From a virus: a stretch of DNA of 25,069 nt. Position numbers and translations under genes: made by a program. Location of the stretch: the IMG/VR virus record IMGVR_UViG_3300043313_001183, positions 1 through 25,069 of that record. One strand, given 5' to 3'. How positions within the stretch are numbered: the first letter of the stretch is position 1; the number at the start of each line of letters is the position of its first letter. This document shows, in pieces, positions 7,321-25,051 of the stretch. Below the pieces are notes generated by a model. That model worked only from the letters and a program-made list of their open reading frames with translations, was not told the DNA's origin and did no database searches.

Positions 7321-10300
7321 ATGGCGGGCAACGACGACCACGTCATCGAAACCGATGTCGTCCGGATCGAACCGGACCTCAAAGGATTCCGCAAGAAGCT
7401 CGAAAAGGATCTGGCGGTAGCCCTCAAAGGCGTTGAGGGCACCGTCCCGATCGAAGCCGTCCCCGACAAGCAACGTGTCGAGCAGCAGCGGGCCATCAAC
7501 TACGTTGCCGGACTCCGCACCAAGTACATCAAAGACCAGCTCAAGCGCACCCGTGACGGCAACGAGCAGGTAGCCCGCGCCAACGACCAGGCCCGAGCAC
7601 ACGAACTCAAGCAAGAGCGTTCCTTCCAGGAGACCCTCGACCGTCTGCACCTGCGTGCCACTGAGGTTGAAGTCGACCGAGTCCGGTCCACGTCGGAGAA
7701 AGTCGCACGGGCACACGACCAGGCGCGGAAGCAGAACCTAGAACGGGACATGACGCAGGTCCGCACCCTCGCCGAGAGGGTTGCGAAGGCTGAGGTCAAC
7801 GCCCGGCTCACGGCACTGTCCCGGGAAAACTCGCGACTGCGCAGCGAGTCGGAGAAGCTGGAGAAGTCCCTAGCCGAAGCGGTCCTGGCCGACAGGGAAC
7901 GCACAAGCCGGCGGATCCGTAACCTCGATGAGGGGTTCGAGCGCACCCGCGACCAGGCGCAGCGGGCGAACTACGACCGGGAACGGCAGCGGTACCGCAC
8001 CCACAGCGAGTACATGGACGCCCTGCACGCGGCGGCGTTCAACCAGGAGCGGAACCGGACCCGGTCATACACGGAGTCGTTGGCCAGCGCTCAGGAGGCG
8101 GCGCTCCGCGAGGATCAGGCGCGCGCGAAGAGGGCGTCGGATGAACGCACCCGGATCCTGGAGAAGGAGCAGACCCGAACCCAGAAGATCCGCAAGCAGC
8201 TCACCACCGGGCCGAAGCTGATCGACTACGGCGGCGCGGGTGTCAAGCCGACGAACCTGCTCCTGGGTGTCGTCACGGCTATGACCCCGGCACTTTTTGC
8301 AATGGCATCATCAGCAGTTCAGGCATCGACGTCTATCGCTGCGTTGGGTTCAGCGTCCATCGGCGCGGCCCTCGGCATCGGAGGTCTGGCCGTCGCGTTC
8401 CAGGGCATCGGCGACGCCCTCACCCTGCGCAAAAGCGTGCAGAACGAAGCCCTCACCGCTGCTGCCAACGCCATCAACGCCACCGACGACCTCGCCCGCG
8501 CCCGACGCGCCCTCGCCGACGCGCAACGCGACGAGAAGACCGCCAACGAAGACCTGCACACCTCCCGCCTCGAAGCCATCCGCGACCTCCGGGACCTACG
8601 GCAGTCCGTCAAAGACCTCAACAACGAATACAAAGACGACGCCCTCACCGTCGAAGAGAAACGCCGCGACGAAGACACCACCCTGCGCAACTTCTTCGCC
8701 ACCAGCCTCGAAAAGCGCCGCGCCACACAGGACCGCAAAAACGCCGAGACCGAACTCAGCGACACGGCCCTGCAACGCAAGCAGAAAACCGACGACCTCA
8801 AAACGTCGGTGCGCAAAGGCATCGAAGGCTCCGACAAAGTCCGCGACGCCAGAGAACGCGTCCGGGACAGCCGCGACCGGGTACTCGACGCGAAAGACTC
8901 CGTCCGTCAGCAGCAGAAAGCCGCAGCCGGCACCGTCAACAAAACCAGCTCGGCAGCAGCACAGCTCAAGAAGAAACTCGCCGAGATGGCACCCGCCGCC
9001 CGGGACATCTACTACTGGTTCGACAAGAACGAGCAAGTCTTCAAGCGGCTCCAACGCAACGTCGCGCAAGCCGTCCTGCCCGGCTTCTACGACTTCCTGA
9101 AAGCCGTCAACTCCCAACCGAAGGGCGGCGGCAAAACCACCCTGGAACTGGCCGCGCAGTACGCCGGTGAGCTGGGCGGCATCATCGGCAAGTACGTCGG
9201 GAAACTCGGCGAATGGTCGAAGTCTCCGTTCTTCCGGACCCGCATGGACCGCATCCAGAAGACCAACGCCGACGCCTTCGAAACCCTCGGCCGGGCCCTG
9301 ACGATCCTGGCGAAGCCGTTGCTGCGGATCATCGACCGTGCCGCGCCCGGTTTTGAGTCCATGGCGGACGGACTCGAACGGTTCGCCAAATGGTTCGACA
9401 AGGTCATCAAGAAGGCCGACGAGAGCGGCGCCCTGAAGAAGTGGTTCGACGACGCCCGGGTATCGGCCGGCAAGTGGCTCGACATCGGCAAGAACATCCT
9501 CGACACCATCGGCATCCTCTTCGGTGCGGCGCTGCCTTCCGGTGGGTCCCTGCTCGATCAGTTCCTCGCGTTCACCGAAGGCATGAAGACCTGGACCAGT
9601 GACCACCAGGCGAAGATCACCGAGTTCTTCGACAAAATCGCCAACCTGCCGTTCGCGAAGATCGCCGACTTCTTCGTCAACGCCACCGCCTTCTTCGTCG
9701 CCTTCCGGACCCTGAAGTTCCTCACCTCACTCAACCCGTTCTTCACCGCCTTCGCCGCGTTTGCCGCTGCGCACCCCGAAGACACCGCCGAGTTCTTCAA
9801 GTGGCTCGGCGACGGCCTCGCAAAAGGCGTCAAAGTCCTCGCCGACAACCCGAAGGCCGTCGCCGCCCTCCTCGCCATCCTCGCCGCCGGCAAGCTCGCA
9901 AAGACCGTCGGGTTCGACATCAAAATCCCCGTCGTCAACGCGCTGCGGGACACCCTCGTCAGCCGGTTCAAAGTCCTGGACAAGTTCGTCGGTGGTGGCG
10001 CCAACACCGCCACCATGACCGTCCACGCCGGAGTGGTCAACGTCTACGGCAAAGCCGTCGGCGGTGCAGGCTCCGTCGGTGGCGGCCTCGACTACCCCGG
10101 CAAGGACGGCAAGGGCAAGCCGGGCAAGGTCAGCAAAGCCACCAGGATCAGCAACGCCGCCGGTGGAATCGGCACCGGCAACATCATCATGGCCGGAGCC
10201 CTCGCCGGGTACACCATCGGCAAAGACGAACTCGACCGGGTCACCTCCGTGCTGTCCGGCAAGAACAAAGACGCCTACCACTCCTGGTCCGACGCCATCA

Positions 10301-12267
10301 CCAAGAAGCCGTTCGACGCCGGCAACTGGTATGACACCTTCGTCGACAACTCCCTCGTCGTCATGCTGCCGCTGATTGCGAAGAAACTCCTCGGCGGTAA
10401 GACGAAGAAGGCGGCAGAGCCCATCACGGCTGCCACCAGGACCGACGAGAAGTATCAGCTCAGCCGGCTCACGAACAACCTGCAAGCCTTCGGCAAAGAC
10501 TCACCCGTCACCAAAGGCGCCCTCAACGACTACATCGCTGCCCGGCGTAAGTCGGTCAAGGAATACGTCGACTACATCAGGGGCAAGGACGGGCCCGTCG
10601 CTGCCGACAAGGTGCAGCAGGCCGAAGACGAAAAGTCCCGCACCGTCCTGTCGAAGCTGCTCACGCAGTACGGGTGGACGAAGACCGCCGCGAACGTCTA
10701 CACCAAGCAGGTCTTCAACACCGCCACCCAGACGAAGGCAGCCGACGATAAAGCGAAGGCCGCCACTGAATCCTTCGACAGCATGGGCAACGCCCTCATC
10801 AAAACCAAGGGCAAGGCCGCCAAGCTCAACACTGAAGTCACCGGCCTCAAAGACACCATCGACGCCACCATCGGCCCGCACGTCATCGCGTTGTCGACGA
10901 AGAACTACGACGCGGTCAAGAAGCAGCTCGACATGCTGTACGCCACCCAGCACGTCCTCTACAACCCGACGTACAGCAACAGTGCATCAGGCGCCGACAC
11001 CGTCTCGTCGCAGAATCAGTTCCTCGACCCGAAGACTGGACTGCCGAAGAAGTACATGAAGGCCGACGGTGGACCCATCCGGGGGCCCGGCACGGCAACG
11101 TCGGACTCCATCCCGGCGCGGCTGTCCAACGGCGAATACGTCATGCCCACCAAGGCCGTCCAGCACTACGGGCTCGGAGTCATGGACGCCATGCGCAAGC
11201 GGGAAGTCCCAGGCTTCGCTAAAGGTGGCCCGGCCGCCATGCCCTTCACGGTGAACCTGCCGACGAAGGGTTTCCAGTTCCCGGCACCCCCGTCCGCCTA
11301 CTACCCCGGAGGTGGCAAAGCCTCCGGCAACATCAAAGTCGCCGAGATCGCAGAAGCCACCGCCCGTGCCATGGGAGCCACCGAGAAGCAGTTGGTGGCG
11401 CTGATCGAAGCGGGCCTGGTCGAATCGGGGCTGCGGAACCTCACCTACGGCGACCGTGACTCCGTCGGCTTCCTTCAGCAGCGTGCCGGCTGGGGCTCCC
11501 TCGCCGCCCGGATGAACGTTGCCACCGCCACCAGAAAGTTCATCAGCAAAGCCCGGCGGATCAACGACGCGAAGATGACCTCCGGGCAGTTGGCGCAAGC
11601 AGTACAAGTGTCGGCGTTCCCGGACCGGTACGACAAGCGCCAGGCCGATGCTGTCGCCGTCCTCAACCGGGCCATCCCGTACCTCTCCGGGGGAACCGGA
11701 GGCGCGGGCAGCAAAGCCGGGCTGATCTCCTTCGGACGTTGGTTGCAGGCCAGGGGCTACGACGTGTCCGAACACCCCGCCTTCGGAGGCGTCAAGCAGG
11801 GCGCCCACGTCAAGAACTCCCAGCACTACCGGGAGTCCGCCATCGACGTCAACCACGGCGCCGGGACCAGCGCCAAAGAACAGGCCTACCTGCGGCAGAT
11901 CCTGCCCGAAGCACACCGGCGCGGCTTCCATTCCATCTTCATGGACCCGAAACTCGGCCACTACGACCACGCCCACTTCGACCTGGGCAGAGGCCACGCC
12001 GACGGGGGCCTCGTTCGAAAGTACGACTCCGGCGGGAAACTCCCACCCGGCTACACCCTGGCGTTCAACGGCACCGGCAAAAACGAAACCATCCGGACCG
12101 CCGAACAAGAAAAGCAGGTCACCGCTGGGCTGCGCCTCGACCGGCGTGACATCGCTTTACTCGCCGCGCACATCGCCGGAGCAACCGGCACCGCGGCGAT
12201 CACCATGGACGGCCGGAAAGTCGCCGAAACCACCAACCGCTACAACTACCTGCCGGCGGGGGTGTGA
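7321..12267 (+). CDS. tape measure protein with C-terminal transglycosylase-like and M15-like domains
   Basis: A 1648-residue tail length ruler. At the usual ~1.5 angstrom per residue this implies a tail up to about 245 nm. Residues ~20-290 and ~380-560 are long charged coiled coils. About 310-365 (LLLGVVTAMTPALFAMASSA onward) and ~775-815 are hydrophobic, fitting membrane interaction. Near 1250-1290 stands GPGTATSDSIPARLSNGEYV, a motif common in tape measures. Residues ~1340-1400 look like a lytic transglycosylase domain with E1368 in LVESG and later YGDRDSVGFLQQR. Residues ~1466-1560 look like an M15-type Zn peptidase with H1502 and D1509 (SQHYRESAID) and H1550/H1552 (GHYDHAHFDL). Both probably open the cell wall during DNA entry. 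The start is ATG 7321, and the stop overlaps the next start. Confidence 0.95.
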   Translation: MAGNDDHVIETDVVRIEPDLKGFRKKLEKDLAVALKGVEGTVPIEAVPDKQRVEQQRAINYVAGLRTKYIKDQLKRTRDGNEQVARANDQARAHELKQERSFQETLDRLHLRATEVEVDRVRSTSEKVARAHDQARKQNLERDMTQVRTLAERVAKAEVNARLTALSRENSRLRSESEKLEKSLAEAVLADRERTSRRIRNLDEGFERTRDQAQRANYDRERQRYRTHSEYMDALHAAAFNQERNRTRSYTESLASAQEAALREDQARAKRASDERTRILEKEQTRTQKIRKQLTTGPKLIDYGGAGVKPTNLLLGVVTAMTPALFAMASSAVQASTSIAALGSASIGAALGIGGLAVAFQGIGDALTLRKSVQNEALTAAANAINATDDLARARRALADAQRDEKTANEDLHTSRLEAIRDLRDLRQSVKDLNNEYKDDALTVEEKRRDEDTTLRNFFATSLEKRRATQDRKNAETELSDTALQRKQKTDDLKTSVRKGIEGSDKVRDARERVRDSRDRVLDAKDSVRQQQKAAAGTVNKTSSAAAQLKKKLAEMAPAARDIYYWFDKNEQVFKRLQRNVAQAVLPGFYDFLKAVNSQPKGGGKTTLELAAQYAGELGGIIGKYVGKLGEWSKSPFFRTRMDRIQKTNADAFETLGRALTILAKPLLRIIDRAAPGFESMADGLERFAKWFDKVIKKADESGALKKWFDDARVSAGKWLDIGKNILDTIGILFGAALPSGGSLLDQFLAFTEGMKTWTSDHQAKITEFFDKIANLPFAKIADFFVNATAFFVAFRTLKFLTSLNPFFTAFAAFAAAHPEDTAEFFKWLGDGLAKGVKVLADNPKAVAALLAILAAGKLAKTVGFDIKIPVVNALRDTLVSRFKVLDKFVGGGANTATMTVHAGVVNVYGKAVGGAGSVGGGLDYPGKDGKGKPGKVSKATRISNAAGGIGTGNIIMAGALAGYTIGKDELDRVTSVLSGKNKDAYHSWSDAITKKPFDAGNWYDTFVDNSLVVMLPLIAKKLLGGKTKKAAEPITAATRTDEKYQLSRLTNNLQAFGKDSPVTKGALNDYIAARRKSVKEYVDYIRGKDGPVAADKVQQAEDEKSRTVLSKLLTQYGWTKTAANVYTKQVFNTATQTKAADDKAKAATESFDSMGNALIKTKGKAAKLNTEVTGLKDTIDATIGPHVIALSTKNYDAVKKQLDMLYATQHVLYNPTYSNSASGADTVSSQNQFLDPKTGLPKKYMKADGGPIRGPGTATSDSIPARLSNGEYVMPTKAVQHYGLGVMDAMRKREVPGFAKGGPAAMPFTVNLPTKGFQFPAPPSAYYPGGGKASGNIKVAEIAEATARAMGATEKQLVALIEAGLVESGLRNLTYGDRDSVGFLQQRAGWGSLAARMNVATATRKFISKARRINDAKMTSGQLAQAVQVSAFPDRYDKRQADAVAVLNRAIPYLSGGTGGAGSKAGLISFGRWLQARGYDVSEHPAFGGVKQGAHVKNSQHYRESAIDVNHGAGTSAKEQAYLRQILPEAHRRGFHSIFMDPKLGHYDHAHFDLGRGHADGGLVRKYDSGGKLPPGYTLAFNGTGKNETIRTAEQEKQVTAGLRLDRRDIALLAAHIAGATGTAAITMDGRKVAETTNRYNYLPAGV

Positions 12268-13193
12268 TGAACACCGACCCGAAACCAGCCGAACTCAGGC
12301 TCGTCAACGGAACCGACACCATCGTCATCCGCCCCCGCTCAGCAGGCGGCCTCGACCCCATCATGTGTAAACAGTGGGACCTGGGCTCACCCGAAATGCG
12401 GTACACCTCCGTTGCCAACCCCGGCGCGGACGGAGTCACCTACAGCGAAGGGTTCACCGGATCCCGGACTGTCACCCTGGATTTAGCGATCCTCGGTGGC
12501 CGGGACCCGATCACCGGGCTCAGCCACGACGCCTACTGGTACGCCAACAAGCTCACCCAGATGGCACACCCGAAGGCCCTACCAGTCCTTCAGATCACCC
12601 GCGACGACGAGATCAACGCCGGAGCCACCTGGAGCATGGACCTGCGAGGCTCGCCGTACTCGCTGCCCTACAGCTCCCGCTCGGCGTCGCTGCTGGAACT
12701 GCAACTGACGTTCACCTGCCCCCTCGGCCTCATCGAAGGCCCCCTGCTGTGCTTCACCACCCCCGCCCCCGACGACACCGGCGACACCGACCTTGACATG
12801 CCATTCATGCTGCCGTTCACGTTCGGGCTCACCGGGGCGAAGTATCCGCACATCACCATGGAAGTCGGCGGCGACTCCATGGTCACCCCCATGGTCTACA
12901 TCTCCGGGCCCGTCACCAACCCCGACCTGCGGATGGACGACGGGGACCGGTTCGCGTTCAAAGGCCTCACCCTGCCCGTCGGCCAGACCGTCCAGATCGA
13001 CATGGGCGCCGGCACCGTCCGACTCGGCGACGCCGACACCGGGATGGTCACCGACGACATGGGCGCCTACAACCAAGTCGACTGGGCCGTGTCGTCGTTC
13101 TGGCAATGGCAGCCAGGCACCCACACCCTGCTGTACCGCAACACCACCGGCAACGTCACCGTTCAATACCGGGAACGCCGGCTCACCATCTAA
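12267..13193 (+). CDS. distal tail protein (Dit-like)
   Basis: A 308-residue protein in the slot right after the tape measure, expected to form the hexameric ring at the tail tip. The ATG at 12267 overlaps the tape measure TGA by one base; a GTG at 12264 would add one residue. The N-terminal half has the Dit-like flow: GADGVTYSEGFTGSRTVTLD, then AYWYANKLTQMAHP (the helix over the ring), then the strand block LELQLTFTCPLGLIEGP. The C-terminal half is a beta domain (GDRFAFKGLTLPVGQTVQID and HTLLYRNTTGNVTVQYRER) like the galectin-type domain of longer Dit proteins. The next gene follows after 15 bp. Confidence 0.85.
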   Translation: MNTDPKPAELRLVNGTDTIVIRPRSAGGLDPIMCKQWDLGSPEMRYTSVANPGADGVTYSEGFTGSRTVTLDLAILGGRDPITGLSHDAYWYANKLTQMAHPKALPVLQITRDDEINAGATWSMDLRGSPYSLPYSSRSASLLELQLTFTCPLGLIEGPLLCFTTPAPDDTGDTDLDMPFMLPFTFGLTGAKYPHITMEVGGDSMVTPMVYISGPVTNPDLRMDDGDRFAFKGLTLPVGQTVQIDMGAGTVRLGDADTGMVTDDMGAYNQVDWAVSSFWQWQPGTHTLLYRNTTGNVTVQYRERRLTI

Positions 13194-14142: not shown

Positions 14143-14574
14143 ATGGCTAACGCCAGCTACACCGCATTCAAAAACGGCATCCTCACAGGTGCCTACGATC
14201 TCGACACCGCCGTCCTCAAAGTCGCGCTCGTCGGTGGCTACACCTTCAGTGCCGCGCACACCTCCATGGCTGACGTCACCAGCGCCGGAGGTGTCGTCAA
14301 CGGCACCCCCGCCACCCTGGCCAACGTCACCATCGTCGCTGGAGTGTTCGACGCCGACGACAACACCATCACCACCACCGCCTCCGGCAGCTCCCACGTC
14401 CTGATCGTCTACCAGGCATCGGCGATCACCGGCGGCGCCGACGTCACCGCAGCGAACCAGAAACTGTGCTGGTACTTCGACACCGGCACCAACCTGCCGA
14501 TCACCCCAGGCGCCGGCTCGTTGACGATCACCTGGCCGTCGACAGCGGCGAAGATTTACAAAGTCGGCGCGTAA
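14143..14574 (+). CDS. tail-region protein of unknown function
   Basis: A 143-residue protein from ATG 14143 with a strong ribosome site (ATGAGGAG) upstream. The sequence SYTAFKNGILTGAYDLDTAVLK, then VALVGGYTFSAAHTSMADV, then ITTTASGSSHVLIVYQAS and WYFDTGTNLPITPGAGSLTI is a type common in phage tail gene clusters. It resembles the family that begins with '...F...L.G..DL....KVALV...Y.....H....DV', whose role is unsettled. It is beta-rich, has no membrane segment and is likely structural. The large hub/adhesin gene starts 24 bp after its stop. Confidence 0.8.
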   Translation: MANASYTAFKNGILTGAYDLDTAVLKVALVGGYTFSAAHTSMADVTSAGGVVNGTPATLANVTIVAGVFDADDNTITTTASGSSHVLIVYQASAITGGADVTAANQKLCWYFDTGTNLPITPGAGSLTITWPSTAAKIYKVGA

Positions 14575-14597: not shown

Positions 14598-17500
14598 GTG
14601 GCACTGATCGAAACCCTCAAAGATCCGCTCGACTCCTTCACCGCCACGTGGGGGGGGTCGAACACCGCCACCTATAGCAACACTTTCATCGGCGGCCGAT
14701 ACCGTGCCGGTGGATCATCGACGACACCCCTGCCTTACGCCAAGATCGAATCCGTCGCGAGCTACACGCTGACGAACAGCTCCGTCTACGTACAAGTCTT
14801 CCCGTACGTCGGTAGTGCCTCCTTCCGCACGTTCATGCGCCTGAAGAACGCCAACGGGCAAGACCTGTACTTCGGCTGCAACGGAATCAACCTGCTCTTC
14901 AGCCTCGACAACGGGACGACAATCCCGTACTACACGCCCTACAACGCGACCAACGACGCGTGGTGGCGGATCCGGCACAGCGGCAGCACCGCATACTTCG
15001 AAACGTCCCCCGACAGGGCAACCTGGACGACGAAGTACACGACATCGATGGACCCGACGGCGGACTTCCAACTCGAACTCGGCGTCCACGTCACCGGCGG
15101 CCTCACCACCGACCTCTACAGCTACTTCGACAACGTCAACGGTGGCGGCCTACTCGACTCCCTCATCGACGACTTCACCGGCACCACCCTCAACAGCGCA
15201 CTGTGGACGCCGGCGGGCTCCGGCAGCGCCAGTGTCAGCGGCGGGCAGCTCGCCATCACCTGCTCCTCCGGCCAAAGCCTCAACGTCACCAGCAAGGCTT
15301 CCTACGCCATCGCTGGAAGCTGGATCACCGCGAAGATGGCCCCTGGCGCCGGTCAGGTAGCAGCCATCACGGTGGTGCCGATTGCCGGTAACGGAAACGT
15401 CTACGTCCAGGTCGCCGGGGGCACCGCGACCTTCTCCGCCAGGGACTCCGGCAACATTCTGCGCGTCAGCACTTCCGTCGCCTACAACGCGACCACCATG
15501 GCGTACTGGCGGATCAGTTTCACCGCCGGTGTCAGCTTCGAATACTCGGCCGACGGTATCGCGTGGACGTTAGCTGCATCAGCGGTGACCTTCGCTGTCG
15601 CCCAGCCTCATCAGGTCTACCTGCAAGGTCAGTACAGCACCGGTTCTGGCACCACGTATTTCGACAAGATCAATATTCGCCCCTTTGCCGTCACCGCCAA
15701 CCCGACAGGCATCAACGACCCCGACGCCATCGGCAACCCGGCAGCACCATGGATCCGCAACGTCAGTCCTACCGGCATCAACGACCCGGAAACGCTCACC
15801 GCCCCGACACCCGGCACGCTCATCGAAACCCTCATCGATGACTTCGACGGGCCCACCCTCGACAGCAAACTGTGGACACCGGGCGGCACCGGAACCGCCA
15901 CCATCAGCGGCGGGCAACTCAAACTCACCTCCCCCAGCAGCTACATGCAAGTCGCCGCTCGGAGCAGCTACTACCTCACCGGAAGCCGCGTCACCGCGAA
16001 GATCAACGTTCCGGTCGACAACAACGGCCGACTCCAACTCGTCGCGCCCAGTGGTCCCGGTTTCGTCCGCATCATCTTCAGCAGCCTCGCCGACATCTAC
16101 GCCGTCGACGAGACCGGCGCAGCCCGCATCCCCACCGCCTACGTCGCCTACAACCCTGTCACCATGCCGTATTGGCGGATCAGCTTCGCCGCCGGCATCT
16201 CCGTCGACTACTCGGCAGACGGCCTCAACTGGACTGTTGCAAAATCGGCGGCAACGTTTGTCACAAGCCTGCCGTACACCGTTACGCTGCAAACCTTTGG
16301 CCCCAGCACCGCCTACTTCGACAAATTCAACATCCTGCCGACGGTGATCAACCCTGCCGGGATGAACGACCCGGAGACGATCAACGGGCCCGCAGTCACC
16401 TTCACTGCCCCCCCGCCGAACTACGTCGAACCCGGGAGCATCACCGACCCCGACACCACCACCGGGCCTGACGTTGACCTTGCCGTCACCGTCAACGCCG
16501 AACCCGACGGCATCACCGACGACGACACGGTCAACGGGCCGACGATCACCGACTACATCGCCCCGAACATCGTCTACCCCGACAGCACCGAAGACCCCGA
16601 CACCCTCGGCACCCCCGACGTCGCCTTCGTCGTGCCCGCCGAACCCGAATCGAACCGCGACGACGAAACCTTCGGCGAACCCACCCTCGGCGTCGCACTG
16701 TGGCCCGAACCGGACTCCCTCACCGACGCCGAAACCCTTGGCACCCCCGACCTGAAATTCGTGCCCGGCACCGTCTACCCAGCCGGTATCGGCGGCAACG
16801 AAGCCATCGGCACCCCCGCCGTCACCTTCATGCCGGGCACCCTCTACCCGCAGGCCATCAGCGACGTCGGCACCATCGGCACCCCCAGCGTCGTCTTCAA
16901 AACCTTCTACACCGGCGGCTACGGACAAGGCCCCTACGGCGTCGGGCTCTACAGCGGCATGTGGATCGGCCTCGACCCGTCCATCACCGACCCCGACGCC
17001 CTCGGCAAACCCGAACTCCAAGCCCTCAAAGCCGTCATCCCGGCCAGCATCACCGACCCCGACCTCACCGGCGGCCCGGCACTGTCCGGCAGCAGCGTCG
17101 GCAACGCCCTCGCCCCGCTGTCCATCGTTGACCCGGAAACCCTCGCGGCGGCCATCGACGTCGACTTCGTCGGCAACGACCTCTACGGGCAAGGCCTCTA
17201 CGGCGTCGGCCTCTACGGCTCCGGACAGCAAGGCGCCGGGGAACCCTACGACCCGGCCATCCCCGGCACCACCAACTACAACTACGGCGCCGGCATCTAC
17301 GGCGAAGGCATCTACCCCGGATCCGTCGGCGCACCCACCGACGACAAACCCCGCGACAACCCCACCTACGGCTCCGGCACCTACAACTACGGCATCTACT
17401 ACGGCCCACAGAAAGCCGACGTCGGCTGCGCACCACTGTTCACCAACATCGTCGGCACAACCCGGCCGCCCATGCACATCCTCGGCATCGGCCCCTGGTC

Positions 17501-18710
17501 ACCGGCAATCGACTGGCGCGGCGCACCCAACTACAACATCGCCGCAGGAGCCCGCGCATCCCGGCCCGCGATGGCACTACCCGCGACGACGTCTAAAGGG
17601 TTCACGCTGCGCCTCAACGACGGATCAGAAGCCCGCACAGACCTGGCCCTGCCCCGGGGTGCCGCCGTCATCATCGACGAAATGGACACCGACCTGTGGT
17701 GGCGCCGCAAAGACCCCCGCACCAACGAACTCGAAGTGATCGGCCGGTTCAACACCAGCCACGTCAACACCGCCACCTCCGACACCGGCGTCACCGTGAG
17801 CTGCCAGTTCGACGACTACCAGACGCTGCTCGCAGACCGGCTCGTCCTCAAATACAAAGACACCAAACACAACGAATCGCTGTGGGACAAGAACACGAAG
17901 GTCACCGACATCCTCGCCTTCGCCATCCCCGGCAACACCCGCCTCGACCTGTCCGAAGTCACCGGAACCAACCCCTACGACCTGGGCACCATCACCCAGC
18001 CGTACCACCTACCCCCCGGCACCGCCGTCGGTGAAGTCTTCGAACAACTCGTCGTCATCAGCAAAACCCGATGGGAATGGTGGATCGAAACCCCCGCCGA
18101 CATCGACGCCCCGCCGAAACTGCGCTTCCAGATCGGCACCCGCGGCCTCGACAAAGGGGTAGTCCTGCACGACTTGGGCAAAGGGCCGTCCAACATCGCC
18201 TCATGGGTTCGCAACGGTGCAGCCGACAGCTACGCCAACAGCCTCAACTACAGCGGCTCAGACGGCAGCGTCGTGGAAGTCATCGACGACGACATCATCC
18301 GATACGGCCAACGAGACGCCACCGCCAGCAACAGCAACCTCGACGGCACCCAGATGGACCTCCTCCGCGCGGCAGCGAAACGGAAACTCGAAAAGCTCGC
18401 CGACCGGACACCCACCTACACCGTCATCCTCGCCGCCGGCTTCTGGCGAGGACGCAAACACATCGACGTCGGCGACACCGTCACCCTGATCATCCGACTC
18501 GGCAAAGACCACTTCGACCAGAAATACCGGGTCGCTGAGATCGCCGTCGAAATCGACGACGTCGGCATGGAAACGGTGACCCTCACCCTCGGCACCCCCC
18601 ACGCCTCCGCAGACGGCCGCAGCAAGAAATCGCCCCTCATGCGGATCGTCCGCTACCTCATCCAGTACACGGCCCCGAAGGGTGCCCTCGAAATCCCCAC
18701 CGACGAATAG
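14598..18710 (+). CDS. large tail hub / adhesin with jelly-roll-like domains, short repeats and Gp37-like domain
   Basis: A 1370-residue protein from GTG 14598 (AGAGGGGGG upstream). Residues ~1-185, ~186-365 and ~408-580 look like three related beta-sandwich (lectin/laminin-G-like) domains. The last two share DDFTGTTLNSALWTP / DDFDGPTLDSKLWTP, YWRISF and FEYSADGIAWT-type motifs. Residues ~367-405 and ~580-860 hold about a dozen ~20-residue units of the form P..I.DP(E/D)T.G.P. Residues ~772-936 include four Tyr/Gly-rich blocks (YGQGLYGVGLYG). Residues ~955-1340 resemble the ReqiPepy6 Gp37-like tail hub domain (GFTLRLNDGSEARTDLALPRG, SCQFDDYQTLLADRL, FWRGRKHIDVGDTVTLIIR). I infer a tail-tip protein that joins baseplate structure and host-surface binding in one chain. 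Confidence 0.88.
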   Translation: MALIETLKDPLDSFTATWGGSNTATYSNTFIGGRYRAGGSSTTPLPYAKIESVASYTLTNSSVYVQVFPYVGSASFRTFMRLKNANGQDLYFGCNGINLLFSLDNGTTIPYYTPYNATNDAWWRIRHSGSTAYFETSPDRATWTTKYTTSMDPTADFQLELGVHVTGGLTTDLYSYFDNVNGGGLLDSLIDDFTGTTLNSALWTPAGSGSASVSGGQLAITCSSGQSLNVTSKASYAIAGSWITAKMAPGAGQVAAITVVPIAGNGNVYVQVAGGTATFSARDSGNILRVSTSVAYNATTMAYWRISFTAGVSFEYSADGIAWTLAASAVTFAVAQPHQVYLQGQYSTGSGTTYFDKINIRPFAVTANPTGINDPDAIGNPAAPWIRNVSPTGINDPETLTAPTPGTLIETLIDDFDGPTLDSKLWTPGGTGTATISGGQLKLTSPSSYMQVAARSSYYLTGSRVTAKINVPVDNNGRLQLVAPSGPGFVRIIFSSLADIYAVDETGAARIPTAYVAYNPVTMPYWRISFAAGISVDYSADGLNWTVAKSAATFVTSLPYTVTLQTFGPSTAYFDKFNILPTVINPAGMNDPETINGPAVTFTAPPPNYVEPGSITDPDTTTGPDVDLAVTVNAEPDGITDDDTVNGPTITDYIAPNIVYPDSTEDPDTLGTPDVAFVVPAEPESNRDDETFGEPTLGVALWPEPDSLTDAETLGTPDLKFVPGTVYPAGIGGNEAIGTPAVTFMPGTLYPQAISDVGTIGTPSVVFKTFYTGGYGQGPYGVGLYSGMWIGLDPSITDPDALGKPELQALKAVIPASITDPDLTGGPALSGSSVGNALAPLSIVDPETLAAAIDVDFVGNDLYGQGLYGVGLYGSGQQGAGEPYDPAIPGTTNYNYGAGIYGEGIYPGSVGAPTDDKPRDNPTYGSGTYNYGIYYGPQKADVGCAPLFTNIVGTTRPPMHILGIGPWSPAIDWRGAPNYNIAAGARASRPAMALPATTSKGFTLRLNDGSEARTDLALPRGAAVIIDEMDTDLWWRRKDPRTNELEVIGRFNTSHVNTATSDTGVTVSCQFDDYQTLLADRLVLKYKDTKHNESLWDKNTKVTDILAFAIPGNTRLDLSEVTGTNPYDLGTITQPYHLPPGTAVGEVFEQLVVISKTRWEWWIETPADIDAPPKLRFQIGTRGLDKGVVLHDLGKGPSNIASWVRNGAADSYANSLNYSGSDGSVVEVIDDDIIRYGQRDATASNSNLDGTQMDLLRAAAKRKLEKLADRTPTYTVILAAGFWRGRKHIDVGDTVTLIIRLGKDHFDQKYRVAEIAVEIDDVGMETVTLTLGTPHASADGRSKKSPLMRIVRYLIQYTAPKGALEIPTDE
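15700..17405 (+). repeat. coding repeats: P-x-x-I-x-DPET-x-G-x-P units and YG blocks
   Basis: Protein-level repeats within the large tail gene. Units include PTGINDPETL, NPAGMNDPETINGP, EPGSITDPDTTTGP, EPDGITDDDTVNGP, YPDSTEDPDTLGTP, EPDSLTDAETLGTP, YPAGIGGNEAIGTP and PSITDPDALGKP. Two lie near 15700-15812, before the third jelly-roll-like domain (about 15813-16335), and the rest are at 16336-17165. Tyr/Gly blocks occur at about 16912-16965, 17170-17230, 17275-17330 and 17356-17405. DNA identity between units is modest, so this is an old, diverged array. Confidence 0.85.
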
Positions 18711-18723
18711 GGAAGGACCCCCA

Positions 18724-19494
18724 GTGACTGTCGTACTGCCCGTCATCAACGGATCGTCAGGCGTATGGGGGCAAATCCTCAACACCGCCCTGACCGACAT
18801 CGACGTCCGGCTCACCACCGCCACCAACGCCAACGCGACACAAGACACCGAAGTCGGCGCACTCAAAACCCGCGTCGGCACACTCGAAAGCGGCGCATCA
18901 GCCGGCGGCAAACTCACCGTCACCACCAGCGCCAGCCGACCCCCGATCACCGTCGGCCAGATCGCCCTGGAAACCGACACCGGCTACCTCTACTACGGCG
19001 CCAGCGTCAACGGCACCGCCACCCGCGTACCATTCCCCGGCTCCTACGTCGCGAAAATGCGCTCCACCGCCGCGCAGAACCTCACCACCAGCGTCGCCAC
19101 CCGCATCACCCTCGGCGCCACCGACTTCGACCGACTCGGCGGATGCACTTCCACCCGCTACACCGCACAGGTCCCCGGCATGTACGAACTCACCGGTGCC
19201 GTCTCATTCGAAAACCACTCCACCGGATACCGCGGAACCTACTGGTACCTCAACGGCGCCCAGTACAACGGCTCCACCACCACCCTCGCCGCAACACCGG
19301 GAACCGCCGCACCGACAGTGGTACCGATGCGCACCATTGTCGCCAAGCTCGACGCGGGCCAGTACGTGGAGGTGTACGCCATCCAGAACTCCGGCACCAC
19401 CCTCGCCACCGAAAACGGATTCCAGTACCAGTCGACGGCGCACATCAAATACCTCGGCTACGTCACCCCTGCCGGCGGCGGAAACCCGGGCTAG
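18724..19494 (+). CDS. tail fibre protein with C1q-like head
   Basis: A 256-residue protein from GTG 18724 with GGAAGGA at 18710-18716. The N-terminal ~60 residues (VWGQILNTALTDIDVRLT and ALKTRVGTLESG) look like a baseplate anchor plus short trimeric coiled coil. Residues ~75-100 (SASRPPITVGQIALETDTGYL) match a linker often seen before tail fibre heads. Residues ~110-250 (TRITLGATDFDRLGGCTSTR, AQVPGMYELTGAVSFENHST, IVAKLDAGQYVEVYAIQNSG) follow the C1q/TNF-like jelly roll, a trimeric receptor-binding fold. It is the last rightward structural gene. Its TAG stop shares the bases CTAG with the stop of the convergent HTH gene. Confidence 0.85.
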   Translation: MTVVLPVINGSSGVWGQILNTALTDIDVRLTTATNANATQDTEVGALKTRVGTLESGASAGGKLTVTTSASRPPITVGQIALETDTGYLYYGASVNGTATRVPFPGSYVAKMRSTAAQNLTTSVATRITLGATDFDRLGGCTSTRYTAQVPGMYELTGAVSFENHSTGYRGTYWYLNGAQYNGSTTTLAATPGTAAPTVVPMRTIVAKLDAGQYVEVYAIQNSGTTLATENGFQYQSTAHIKYLGYVTPAGGGNPG

Positions 19495-20158: not shown

Positions 20159-21676
20159 TCACTCTTTCAGGGAGTCCCCGGTCCAGTCGATTCGATCGGC
20201 GGGGTCCCCACGCATACCCGACACGATTCCAGGGCGGATCGTCAGCAGAGGGAAAGCCTCCCGCACCAAGGCCCTTTTTTCCGCAAGGGTGCCGCTCTCC
20301 ATCGTCGCCACGACCTCATCCGCCGCCTTCGAGGGAGTTTCAGGTACGGCAAGACTCTCGAACTCGGCATTGAGGTCATTCAGCAGGCGGCGGTGCCCGA
20401 CGCGCCAAGCCTGGTACTCGTCTTCATCAAGCTCACCAAGCCCCAGCTTCGTGGCCATATCTCGCCCCAGCTTCTTACGGTTCGCGATCTTAATGGCGAG
20501 GGCCGCCTTCGCCTCGTTCCCACTAGCCGCCTGCTCGACAAGCCGCTCCGCATTCCGACTGTCGCCGAGCTTTGCAATGACGGCCTCCTTGACCGCGGCA
20601 TCCAGAAACCGCCAGTCGATGTTGAGGCGCGCGCACCCCAGAGTTGCAGCACGTTGACGCTTGATCTTCATGCAGAAGTAGCTCCGGCGCATTTCACCAT
20701 CGCGGTAGGTCGGCTTCTTTGCCTCCGGTCTTCCGTACAGGACCGCACCACAGCGACCGCAATGCGCCAACCCCGACAACAGGTAGAACGAAGCGGCGGC
20801 ACCACGACGCCGTGAGCCAAATAGCTCCATCAGGTTGCGCCACTTCTCCTCGGTGAGAGCGTGCGCGCCGGGCAGCTTCTTGCCGGGGACAATCTCACCC
20901 CCGTACGCAATGAGACCGCATAGGGCAGGCGACAGAAGGGTCTGCTTGAGGGCCGCATTGCTCCACGGCCTCCCGGTCACAGTGGTAAACCCGGAGCCAT
21001 TCAAGTACTCGGCGGCGACCTGTAAAGACTTCCCTGCCAAGACGAGATCCGTGGCCGTGTTGAGTGCCCCCTGCTCGCGCTCAAGGACGTCGGCGGCGAT
21101 CCCCTCACCCTGCCTACCGAAGCCTCGATAACTCGCGTTCGACTTACCCTTGTGGGCCTTCAGTCGCTTCCCCCGCTTGGTGCGCTTCTGGATCTTGTCA
21201 CTTTCCAGGGCGGCAGCGGTCATAGCGTCACGGAAGTGCCCCTTCCCCTCAGGGATCGAGAGGTCGTACTCAGAATCCCCGCTGAGGACGACAAGGCCGC
21301 GCTCTGCGATTTCGATAAGCCGCTCACCCTCGATCGGCTTCCGGCTGAATCGGGTCAGGTCGTAGACCCACATCCCGTCAGCCTCCCGCGCTTCCAGCCG
21401 CTGCATGAGAGAGTTGAACTGCGGCCGTACGAGGTTCTTCTTCCATGCCGACTTGTGGGGGTCTCTCCACACCTCGCCGATCACGTAGCAGCACACACCC
21501 TGCTCCGCGACGCTGAGCCGGCCATCGGTCTCCTGATCATCCACGGAGCGCTCGCCACCGTCGCCGTCGTAATCCTCAGAGATCCGGCAGTACAAGTCGA
21601 TGATCTTGACGGGCTTGCCGCAGGTCTTACAGGCGGCGCGCGCGTTTGTCCTGGTCAGAGGCTTGAGGGCTGGCAT
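20159..21676 (-). CDS. int: large serine integrase (site-specific recombinase)
   Basis: A 505-residue large serine recombinase that should join attP to a host attB to form the lysogen. It starts at ATG 21676 with AGGG eight bases upstream. Residues ~24-170 are the catalytic domain, with S33 in LYCRISED as probable nucleophile, later MWVYDLTRFSRKPIEGERLI and GHFRDAMTAAALESDKIQ. Residues ~185-290 are the recombinase domain (AAEYLNGSGFTTVTGRPWSN). Residues ~308-360 form a Zn ribbon (HCGRCGAVLYG, then RSYFC and GCARL). About 370-470 is a coiled coil. Unusually, a 23-residue extension with CKTCG precedes the first catalytic strand. Codon use is less G/C-biased than in the tail genes. Confidence 0.95.
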   Translation of the reverse strand: MPALKPLTRTNARAACKTCGKPVKIIDLYCRISEDYDGDGGERSVDDQETDGRLSVAEQGVCCYVIGEVWRDPHKSAWKKNLVRPQFNSLMQRLEAREADGMWVYDLTRFSRKPIEGERLIEIAERGLVVLSGDSEYDLSIPEGKGHFRDAMTAAALESDKIQKRTKRGKRLKAHKGKSNASYRGFGRQGEGIAADVLEREQGALNTATDLVLAGKSLQVAAEYLNGSGFTTVTGRPWSNAALKQTLLSPALCGLIAYGGEIVPGKKLPGAHALTEEKWRNLMELFGSRRRGAAASFYLLSGLAHCGRCGAVLYGRPEAKKPTYRDGEMRRSYFCMKIKRQRAATLGCARLNIDWRFLDAAVKEAVIAKLGDSRNAERLVEQAASGNEAKAALAIKIANRKKLGRDMATKLGLGELDEDEYQAWRVGHRRLLNDLNAEFESLAVPETPSKAADEVVATMESGTLAEKRALVREAFPLLTIRPGIVSGMRGDPADRIDWTGDSLKE

Positions 21677-24640: not shown

Positions 24641-25051
24641 TCACGCCCTGACGTAGGCGCCGGAACCGATACGGCGGATGTGGCCCTGCTTCGCCAGCCG
24701 CGCCCGGACCCGGCGGATCGTGTATATCGAGGCGGGATGGGTGAGGAGAAGTTCAGTCATCGACGGGAGTAGCTCGCCCGGCTTGAAAGTCAGCAGGTGC
24801 GCCTCAACAAGATCCTTCGGCCGGTCGGTGCGCACTCCGGTGTTGCCGTCTTCGATGACGTAGACCCCCCGGCCCTGCACGACATCGACCAGGCCCTCAT
24901 CGGCGAGGATCCGCAGGGCGCGCATGACTGTTGTCCGTGTGGTTTCGTGCCGTCGTGCGAGTTCGGTGGTGGTGGGGAGCCGCTGGCCTGCTGCAAGCTT
25001 CTCTTCTTTGATGTCCCACCGGAGTCGCATCGCTAGTGTCTGGTATCCCAT
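24641..25051 (-). CDS. GntR-type regulator made of two tandem winged-helix domains
   Basis: A 136-residue DNA-binding protein on the minus strand. Residues ~5-66 are a GntR-type winged helix (AAGQRLPTTTELARRHETTR, TTVMRALRILADEGLVDVVQ, GRGVYV). Residues ~80-136 repeat the same pattern (PGELLPSMTELLLTHPASIY, TIRRVRARLAKQGHIRRIGS, GAYV). There is no ligand-binding domain of the usual GntR kinds. It reads toward the tRNA-Lys group and may control it or lysogeny. AAGG abuts the ATG at 25051 too closely to serve it, and the frame stays open to the window edge, so the true start may lie outside. Confidence 0.8.
   Translation of the reverse strand: MGYQTLAMRLRWDIKEEKLAAGQRLPTTTELARRHETTRTTVMRALRILADEGLVDVVQGRGVYVIEDGNTGVRTDRPKDLVEAHLLTFKPGELLPSMTELLLTHPASIYTIRRVRARLAKQGHIRRIGSGAYVRA

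What the first reader, a model, noticed from the sequence alone, without database searches (positions are those of the whole stretch)
14598..18710. Tail hub fused behind a repeat-built adhesin
Three jelly-roll-like domains come first, then a dozen short P..I.DPET.G.P units and Tyr/Gly blocks, then the Gp37-like hub domain at the C terminus. Domain duplication (copies 2 and 3 share several motifs) and a spacer of repeats before the hub suggest an extendable host-binding arm in a single hub protein, an unusual order.
Basis: partly seen in the sequence, partly recalled or inferred. Interest (0 to 1): 0.6.

Follow-up and report, generated by a model that had tools for sequence, protein, structure and literature searches.

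The report
Phage tail hub with N-terminal lectin-like arm
A soil bacteriophage protein joins a string of sugar-binding-type domains and short repeats to the front of the ring-shaped hub at its tail tip, and related phages carry zero to five of these domains, so phages appear to restyle their host-gripping arm by adding or dropping modules.

Summary
ORF 14598-18710 (+, GTG, 1370 aa) has three homologous N-terminal beta-sandwich domains. One is modelled at about 95 pLDDT as a concanavalin-A-like fold; copies 2 and 3 are 44% identical. It also has 13 roughly 22-residue P..I.DPET.G.P units (two of them between domains 2 and 3), four Tyr/Gly blocks, and a C-terminal domain of about 385 aa. That domain is most likely the gp27/Gp37-type tail hub, but sequence matches stay below Pfam cut-offs and cover only its last quarter; the case also rests on synteny, profile comparison with Tal hubs, and elimination. 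Five complete sister proteins and one truncated one keep the hub (46-62% identity) and vary the arm: 0, 0, 1, 2 and 5 sandwich domains (window 3), with differing unit numbers. Domain duplications are lineage-specific. One sister also has the domain-plus-unit cassette fused in front of a different baseplate protein. Known Tals put adhesins after or inside the hub, and 23 chromosomal Gp37 hubs have at most 221 aa upstream (window about 980). So this is a new variant of a known kind, an 'evolved Tal' with inverted order. Ligand, trimer geometry and repeat fold are untested.

The parts
14598..18710 (+). whole fused protein, 1370 aa, GTG start
   Evidence: ORF; same hub with a variable N-terminal arm in five sister contigs plus one truncated
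14604..15140 (+). ConA-like beta-sandwich domain 1 (aa 3-181)
   Evidence: window-free HMM iE 3.1e-27
15150..15683 (+). ConA-like beta-sandwich domain 2 (aa 185-362)
   Evidence: window-free HMM iE 1.8e-31; sister of domain 3
15693..15809 (+). two P.GINDP.. units linking domains 2 and 3 (aa 366-404)
   Evidence: unit HMM from relatives
15819..16340 (+). ConA-like beta-sandwich domain 3 (aa 408-581)
   Evidence: window-free HMM iE 3.6e-29; AF2 pLDDT ~95, Foldseek ConA-like hits
16347..17150 (+). eleven 22-26 aa P..I.DPET.G.P units (aa 584-851)
   Evidence: unit HMM/regex; AF2 pLDDT ~40-55, fold not determined
16893..16961 (+). Tyr/Gly block 1, YGQGPYGVGLY
   Evidence: motif count against shuffles
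17181..17240 (+). Tyr/Gly block 2, YGQGLYGVGLYGSG
   Evidence: 15-bp DNA tandem repeat 17180-17219
17271..17318 (+). Tyr/Gly block 3, YGAGIYGEGIY
   Evidence: 15-bp tandem repeat 17282-17315
17361..17408 (+). Tyr/Gly block 4, YGSGTYNYGIYYG
17466..17519 (+). conserved junction P(L/M)HILG(I/V)GPW... between arm and hub
   Evidence: sequence shows it in the complete members including L126
17520..18710 (+). C-terminal hub domain (gp27/Gp37/Tal-type), about 385 aa
   Evidence: PF14594 sub-threshold in 3 members; hhalign to S. thermophilus Tal score 48 against decoy maximum 24; 46-62% id in sisters
12264..13193 (+). Dit (distal tail protein), docking ring for the hub
   Evidence: Pfam SPP1_Dit 33.6 bits, above cut-off
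14143..14574 (+). phrog_644 baseplate-region protein; in sister L010 a second copy is fused behind a sandwich-plus-unit cassette
18727..19494 (+). probable separate trimeric tip fibre with a receptor-binding-type head (start reassigned from 18682)
   Evidence: phrog_13989 virion structural E 8e-14; conserved behind the hub in sisters; head fold from sequence only

Best explanation
The protein is a siphophage tail hub (Tal/BHP/Gp37-type) of a temperate, probably actinobacterial, phage, with a modular host-surface-binding arm at the 'wrong' end, the N terminus. Inferred mechanism: three copies trimerise through the C-terminal hub domain under the Dit hexamer and around the tape-measure C terminus. 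The N-terminal arm of each copy (three lectin-like ConA-fold domains on a rod or tether of 22-residue units and Tyr/Gly blocks) projects from the hub and gives up to nine low-affinity glycan contacts per virion. Because the hub ends about 37 residues after its last conserved segment, the axial position stays free for a separate tip fibre, most likely 18727-19494. The arm evolves by duplicating, losing or swapping sandwich-plus-unit cassettes while the hub is kept. Shown: domain homology, ConA-like fold of copy 3 (predicted), unit counts, variation among sisters, lineage-specific duplications, cassette fusion to a second anchor protein, gene order. Inferred: trimer, lateral geometry, glycan binding, role in adsorption.
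For: HUB: order TMP-Dit-BppU-like-phrog_644-hub-fibre kept in four further phages, and no other hub candidate between Dit and the fibre in the window. PF14594 weak hits in three members, at the same C-terminal place. All 207 phage records weakly hit by the L002 hub are Streptococcus phages, and the rows listed are mostly Tal/antireceptor-type proteins; the matched region in the one scanned carries PF06605 at 5e-19. hhalign hub vs that Tal: prob 83, score 48.3, against a maximum of 24.2 in 60 column-shuffled decoys; vs genuine Gp37 (Kromp gp19) 33.3 against 24.3. C-terminal tail length (37 aa) matches 23 chromosomal Gp37 hubs (about 30 aa). ARM: sandwich domain homology; relatives L080 and L081 pass Pfam DUF1349; AF2 pLDDT ~95; Foldseek top hits GH43 C-terminal domain, GH16, L-type lectins, CBM66 and a Douge baseplate chain. 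No E.D..E GH16-type motif in the three copies, so a binding domain rather than a hydrolase. MODULARITY: 0/0/1/2/3/5 domains over a conserved hub; domain identity between phages mostly 20-45% against hub 46-62%; sister pairs WIN2/3, L005_3/4 and L002_1/L010x_1.
Against: The AF2 model of the hub alone failed (pLDDT 41, 5-row alignment), and sequence similarity to known hubs covers only the last 80-95 residues. No PDB sequence relative was found. No direct evidence of glycan binding or of the virion position. Repeat and Tyr/Gly structure is unresolved (pLDDT 40-55). Two family members (L004, L126) have no sandwich domains, so the arm's lectin-like part is not essential for a hub of this family.
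Confidence: 0.74

Rival explanations
1. The C-terminal domain is not the hub but another baseplate or tail-fibre anchor that merely resembles the end of the gp27 fold; the adhesin is then an ordinary fibre with a C-terminal anchor.
For: Similarity to hubs is sub-threshold and limited to the last quarter; the hub AF2 model failed; the protein is three genes after Dit rather than directly after it.
Against: No other hub candidate in the tail-tip operon; the only tblastn hits of the L002 hub in 50,697 phage records are Streptococcus phages, with Tal-type annotations in most listed rows; length, C-terminal tail and the position before a tip fibre all fit a hub.
Confidence: 0.14
2. The arm is mainly a spacer or decoration: the sandwich domains are structural (stability, virion stickiness, non-specific environmental glycans) and do not determine host recognition, which lies in the separate fibre 18727-19494.
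For: Hubs of the same family exist without any sandwich domain (L004, L126); a separate fibre gene follows the hub.
Against: Domains diverge far faster than the hub and are duplicated and swapped lineage by lineage, as expected of receptor-contacting modules; CBMs in S. thermophilus Dits and Tals bind their hosts specifically (PMC9437275).
Confidence: 0.22
3. The sandwich domains are enzymes (GH16-like depolymerases) that cut host polysaccharide.
For: GH16 enzymes are among the best fold matches; Ponzi gp58 with the same domain is annotated glycoside hydrolase.
Against: No E.D..E-type motif in the three copies; best matches include non-catalytic lectins and CBM66; in Ponzi the domain is a C-terminal appendix of an 827-aa protein.
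Confidence: 0.04
4. Assembly or frameshift artefact joining separate genes.
For: The window is a metagenomic fragment; Kromp encodes the sandwich domain as a stand-alone gene.
Against: The same uninterrupted sandwich-to-hub fusion occurs in three further independent contigs, with unit repeats leading into the hub in all five complete sisters.
Confidence: 0.01

Closest known systems
Tal / 'evolved Tal' of S. thermophilus and other siphophages (PF06605, gp27-like hub with CBMs; PMC9437275, PMC7291167)
   Same: hub-type domain in the TMP-Dit-Tal region; adhesin extension of variable length built of repeated sugar-binding modules and linkers ('LEGO-like')
   Different: order inverted: adhesin array at the N terminus, hub at the C terminus; different linker (22-aa P..I.DPET.G.P units and Tyr/Gly blocks instead of collagen-like and 3-beta modules); sandwich domains are DUF1349-like ConA folds
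Sipho_Gp37 (PF14594) hubs of actinophages, e.g. Streptomyces phage Kromp gp19
   Same: weak but position-matched similarity over the last ~80-95 aa; same length of domain and C-terminal tail
   Different: below the Pfam cut-off; known members are stand-alone (23 chromosomal places: N-extension median ~19 aa, maximum 221), here about 980 aa
Mycobacteriophage Douge baseplate (BHP hub, BppU with C-terminal CBM, separate central fibre; PMC13033339)
   Same: CBMs around a trimeric hub with a separate central fibre; a Douge baseplate chain is a Foldseek hit to domain 3
   Different: in Douge the CBMs are on BppU and the central fibre, not fused to the hub
phrog_14065 / DUF1349-like tail proteins (Hiyaa gp13, Kromp gp22, Ponzi gp58, Charlie gp21)
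   Same: homologous ConA-like domain, often in tail proteins and in tandem
   Different: stand-alone or attached to other partners; no DPET units
L080/L081 (IMG/VR): two or three sandwich domains in front of a ~530-aa domain directly after the tape measure gene
   Same: same sandwich-array-first order in a probable central baseplate protein
   Different: C-terminal domain unrelated in sequence; its identity as a hub is not shown

Membership tests
Sipho_Gp37 (PF14594) | score above curated cut-off (26.2 bits) | tested here: not met
   16.9-19.4 bits for the window, 22.3 for L126
Tal / gp27-like tail hub | detectable profile similarity to known hubs | tested here: met
   hhalign to S. thermophilus Tal score 48.3 against decoy maximum 24.2 over 93 columns
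Tal / gp27-like tail hub | four-subdomain gp27 fold over ~350-400 aa | tested here: inconclusive
   domain length ~385 aa fits; AF2 model pLDDT 41, not usable
Tal / gp27-like tail hub | gene in the TMP-Dit-Tal block | tested here: met
   TMP 7321-12267, Dit 12264-13193, hub third gene after Dit, same block in four sisters
Tal / gp27-like tail hub | trimer on the Dit hexamer | not testable with these tools
   no multimer prediction available
Classical Tal architecture | hub domain N-terminal, extension C-terminal | tested here: not met
   hub at aa ~985-1370, adhesin arm at aa 3-950
ConA-like beta-sandwich | fold | tested here: met
   AF2 pLDDT ~95 for domain 3; 94 PDB hits at E<=1e-3, ConA-like folds at the top
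DUF1349 (PF07081) | score above curated cut-off (32.4 bits) | tested here: not met
   window copies below cut-off; homologues L081 (41.4) and L080 (33.0) pass
Carbohydrate-binding module / lectin | ligand binding | not tested
   fold resemblance only
GH16 hydrolase | E.D..E-type catalytic motif | tested here: not met
   no such motif in the three copies

The most novel reading that the evidence does not exclude
A class of tail hubs with inverted polarity: variable numbers of lectin-like domains sit on N-terminal arms that radiate laterally from the hub trimer, while the axis is left to a separate fibre; the same sandwich-plus-unit cassette is traded between different baseplate anchors (hub and phrog_644 protein) within one genome.
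Probability: 0.5. Interest if true: 0.5.

Novelty: new variant of a known kind. Interest (0 to 1): 0.42.

Why it matters
It shows that a hub can carry its host-binding modules at the opposite end from the textbook Tal, which implies a different geometry (lateral arms instead of an axial fibre) and leaves the axis to another protein. The sister set (0 to 5 domains over one conserved hub) is a natural module-number series for testing what multivalency does in phage adsorption to soil actinobacteria. It also warns annotators that 'minor tail protein' with a lectin-like start may be the hub.

Tried and rejected
AF2 of the hub domain with five sequences: pLDDT 41, discarded. PDB sequence searches with the hub, Gp37 and Tal profiles: no relatives. 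Genome-contig scan and a 297-genome search with the hub profile: nothing, so host inference rests on neighbours only. The window's own hub domain searched alone against phages gave nothing even at E 10; the Tal link came through the L002 hub. A search of phages with a regular repeat array from L003: no match, perhaps because of low-complexity filtering, although similar ~22-aa units were later seen in Micromonospora (L201, L202), Roseibium (L203) and other neighbours of phrog_644. A first base-rate script ignored strand and gave nonsense for minus-strand loci; redone. Considered and rejected: GH16 enzyme (no motif) and fusion artefact (independent contigs). Literature searches found no description of an N-terminal adhesin array on a tail hub, but the library is open-access only.
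Full report
The window is a 25,069-base metagenomic virus record that runs from a portal gene through head, connector and tail genes to an endolysin, with a serine recombinase and a GntR-type regulator on the other strand. It is therefore probably a fragment of a temperate siphophage. No isolated phage is similar at the DNA level. Sister tail regions were found in IMG/VR contigs of 48-52 kb. A marker protein from the same operon (phrog_644) has its closest chromosomal relatives in Micromonospora prophages, so an actinobacterial host is likely but not shown.

Observation. ORF 14598-18710 encodes 1370 aa. A profile of the N-terminal domain built only from other phages finds three copies in the window. 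Copies 2 and 3 are sisters at 44% identity; copy 1 is a distant homologue. A unit profile built only from the sisters finds 12 of the short repeats, and a 13th is clear by eye. Two units link domains 2 and 3, the other eleven follow domain 3. The four Tyr/Gly blocks far exceed shuffled expectation.

Sandwich domain. Alignment of 69 sequences gave an AlphaFold2 model of domain 3 with pLDDT about 95, while the repeats stayed at 40-55. Foldseek puts the model with ConA-like folds: the GH43 beta-xylosidases (C-terminal domain), GH16 enzymes, L-type lectins, CBM66 and, notably, a chain of the mycobacteriophage Douge baseplate. [quoted passage not shown] Homologues in L080 and L081 pass Pfam's DUF1349 cut-off. 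No GH16-type motif was found, so a binding role is more likely than catalysis. The domain is common in phages: 123 IMG/VR matches confirmed by tblastn and Streptomyces and Mycobacterium phages, as a stand-alone gene (Kromp gp22), behind a glycoside hydrolase (Ponzi gp58) or in the middle of Hiyaa gp13.

Hub domain. Pfam Sipho_Gp37 matches only weakly and only at the end, so by the curated cut-off the protein is not a member. Other evidence points the same way. The L002 hub searched against 50,697 phage records at a loose threshold hits only Streptococcus phages (207 of 207 records), at proteins that in the rows listed are mostly annotated as antireceptor, host specificity, receptor binding or structural proteins. 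In the one scanned, that region is a Tal hub (PF06605, 5e-19). Profile-profile comparison with four of these Tals scores 48.3 against a maximum of 24.2 in shuffled decoys, and 33.3 against 24.3 for genuine Gp37 hubs. Gene order is tape measure, Dit, BppU-like, phrog_644, this protein, fibre, in the window and four sisters (L010 and L012 have extra ORFs before the hub), and no other gene there looks like a hub. The tail of about 37 residues after the conserved segment matches the roughly 30 residues in chromosomal Gp37 hubs. The AF2 attempt on the hub failed, so the fold itself is not shown. I put 'hub' at about 0.85.

Variation among sisters. Over a hub conserved at 46-62% identity, the sisters carry: L004 no sandwich domain, about 9 units, four Tyr/Gly blocks, 765 aa; L126 none, degenerate units, a Phe/Gly block, 605 aa; L002 one domain, 7 units, 847 aa; L003 two domains, 13 units, 1191 aa; L005 five domains, about 11 units, 1780 aa; a truncated L124/L037 at least two. 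The tree shows lineage-specific pairs: window 2/3 (100/98), L005 3/4 (100/100), and L002's hub copy with a second copy in the same genome (97/78). That second copy (L010, 4711-5796) is a sandwich domain plus one unit fused in front of a second phrog_644 domain. In L004 and L126, unrelated small proteins occupy the place of the domains. The arm is thus swapped and extended while the hub stays. At the DNA level only the Tyr/Gly blocks within this gene are tandem repeats, so unit-number change is old, not a rapid switch.

Base rate. In 297 actinobacterial genomes, 23 scored Gp37 places have a median N-terminal extension of about 19 aa (maximum 221) and about 30 aa after the domain. Published Tals have the gp27-like domain first, followed by CBM-bearing extensions, or CBMs inserted in it; lambda gpJ is a partial exception, its hub starting near residue 185 (PMC7291167, PMC9437275). 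No paper found here describes an adhesin array N-terminal to a hub. Outside this family, L080 and L081 also place two or three sandwich domains before a large domain directly after the tape measure gene, which suggests that the arrangement may have arisen more than once, but that domain is not proven to be a hub.

Mechanism. Shown by computation: homology and predicted fold of the sandwich domains, their number variation, cassette copying, and operon position. Inferred: trimerisation, lateral projection of three arms, multivalent glycan contact, and an axial fibre from 18727-19494. Overall this is a new variant of a known kind, the CBM-decorated tail hub, with reversed order and a distinct repeat linker.

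Noticed in passing
L010:4711-5796 (IMGVR_UViG_3300005327_000005): Sandwich domain plus one P.GIND...G.P unit fused in front of a second phrog_644 domain, next to a normal phrog_644 gene: the cassette sits on a second anchor protein in the same genome.
   Followed up: partly
window 20159-21676 (-): Large serine recombinase (Resolvase, Recombinase and Zn-ribbon domains) between the tip-fibre gene and the endolysin: probably the integrase, in a position right behind the tail genes.
   Followed up: partly
window 24641-25051 (-): GntR-family regulator near the right end of the fragment, possibly a lysogeny or host regulator.
   Followed up: no
L095:4656-9257 and L107:4998-9341: Proteins like L080/L081 are split: sandwich domains plus half of the following domain in one ORF, the rest in a separate ORF; in L095 a beta-helix/K1-lyase-C depolymerase-like gene lies between the halves.
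   Followed up: partly
L201:7443-8708, L202:8363-9502 (Micromonospora), L203:7496-10078 (Roseibium), L149:7971-10685: Proteins near phrog_644 with a globular N-terminal part followed by arrays of related ~22-aa P.G(I/V)......G.P.V units and no hub: the unit looks like a widespread phage linker repeat with no Pfam family hit here.
   Followed up: partly
L006:7756-11088 (Hiyaa gp13), L039:4295-6940, L111:3221-7170: Sandwich domain followed or flanked by other short repeat arrays of different sequence (e.g. LSGTG.LGGTA..., GKTGSGIS...): sandwich-plus-short-repeat is a recurring pattern.
   Followed up: no
window 14143-14574 (phrog_644): Very conserved (63-77% in sisters) protein of unknown function just before the hub, found from actinophages to proteobacterial prophages.
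   Followed up: no
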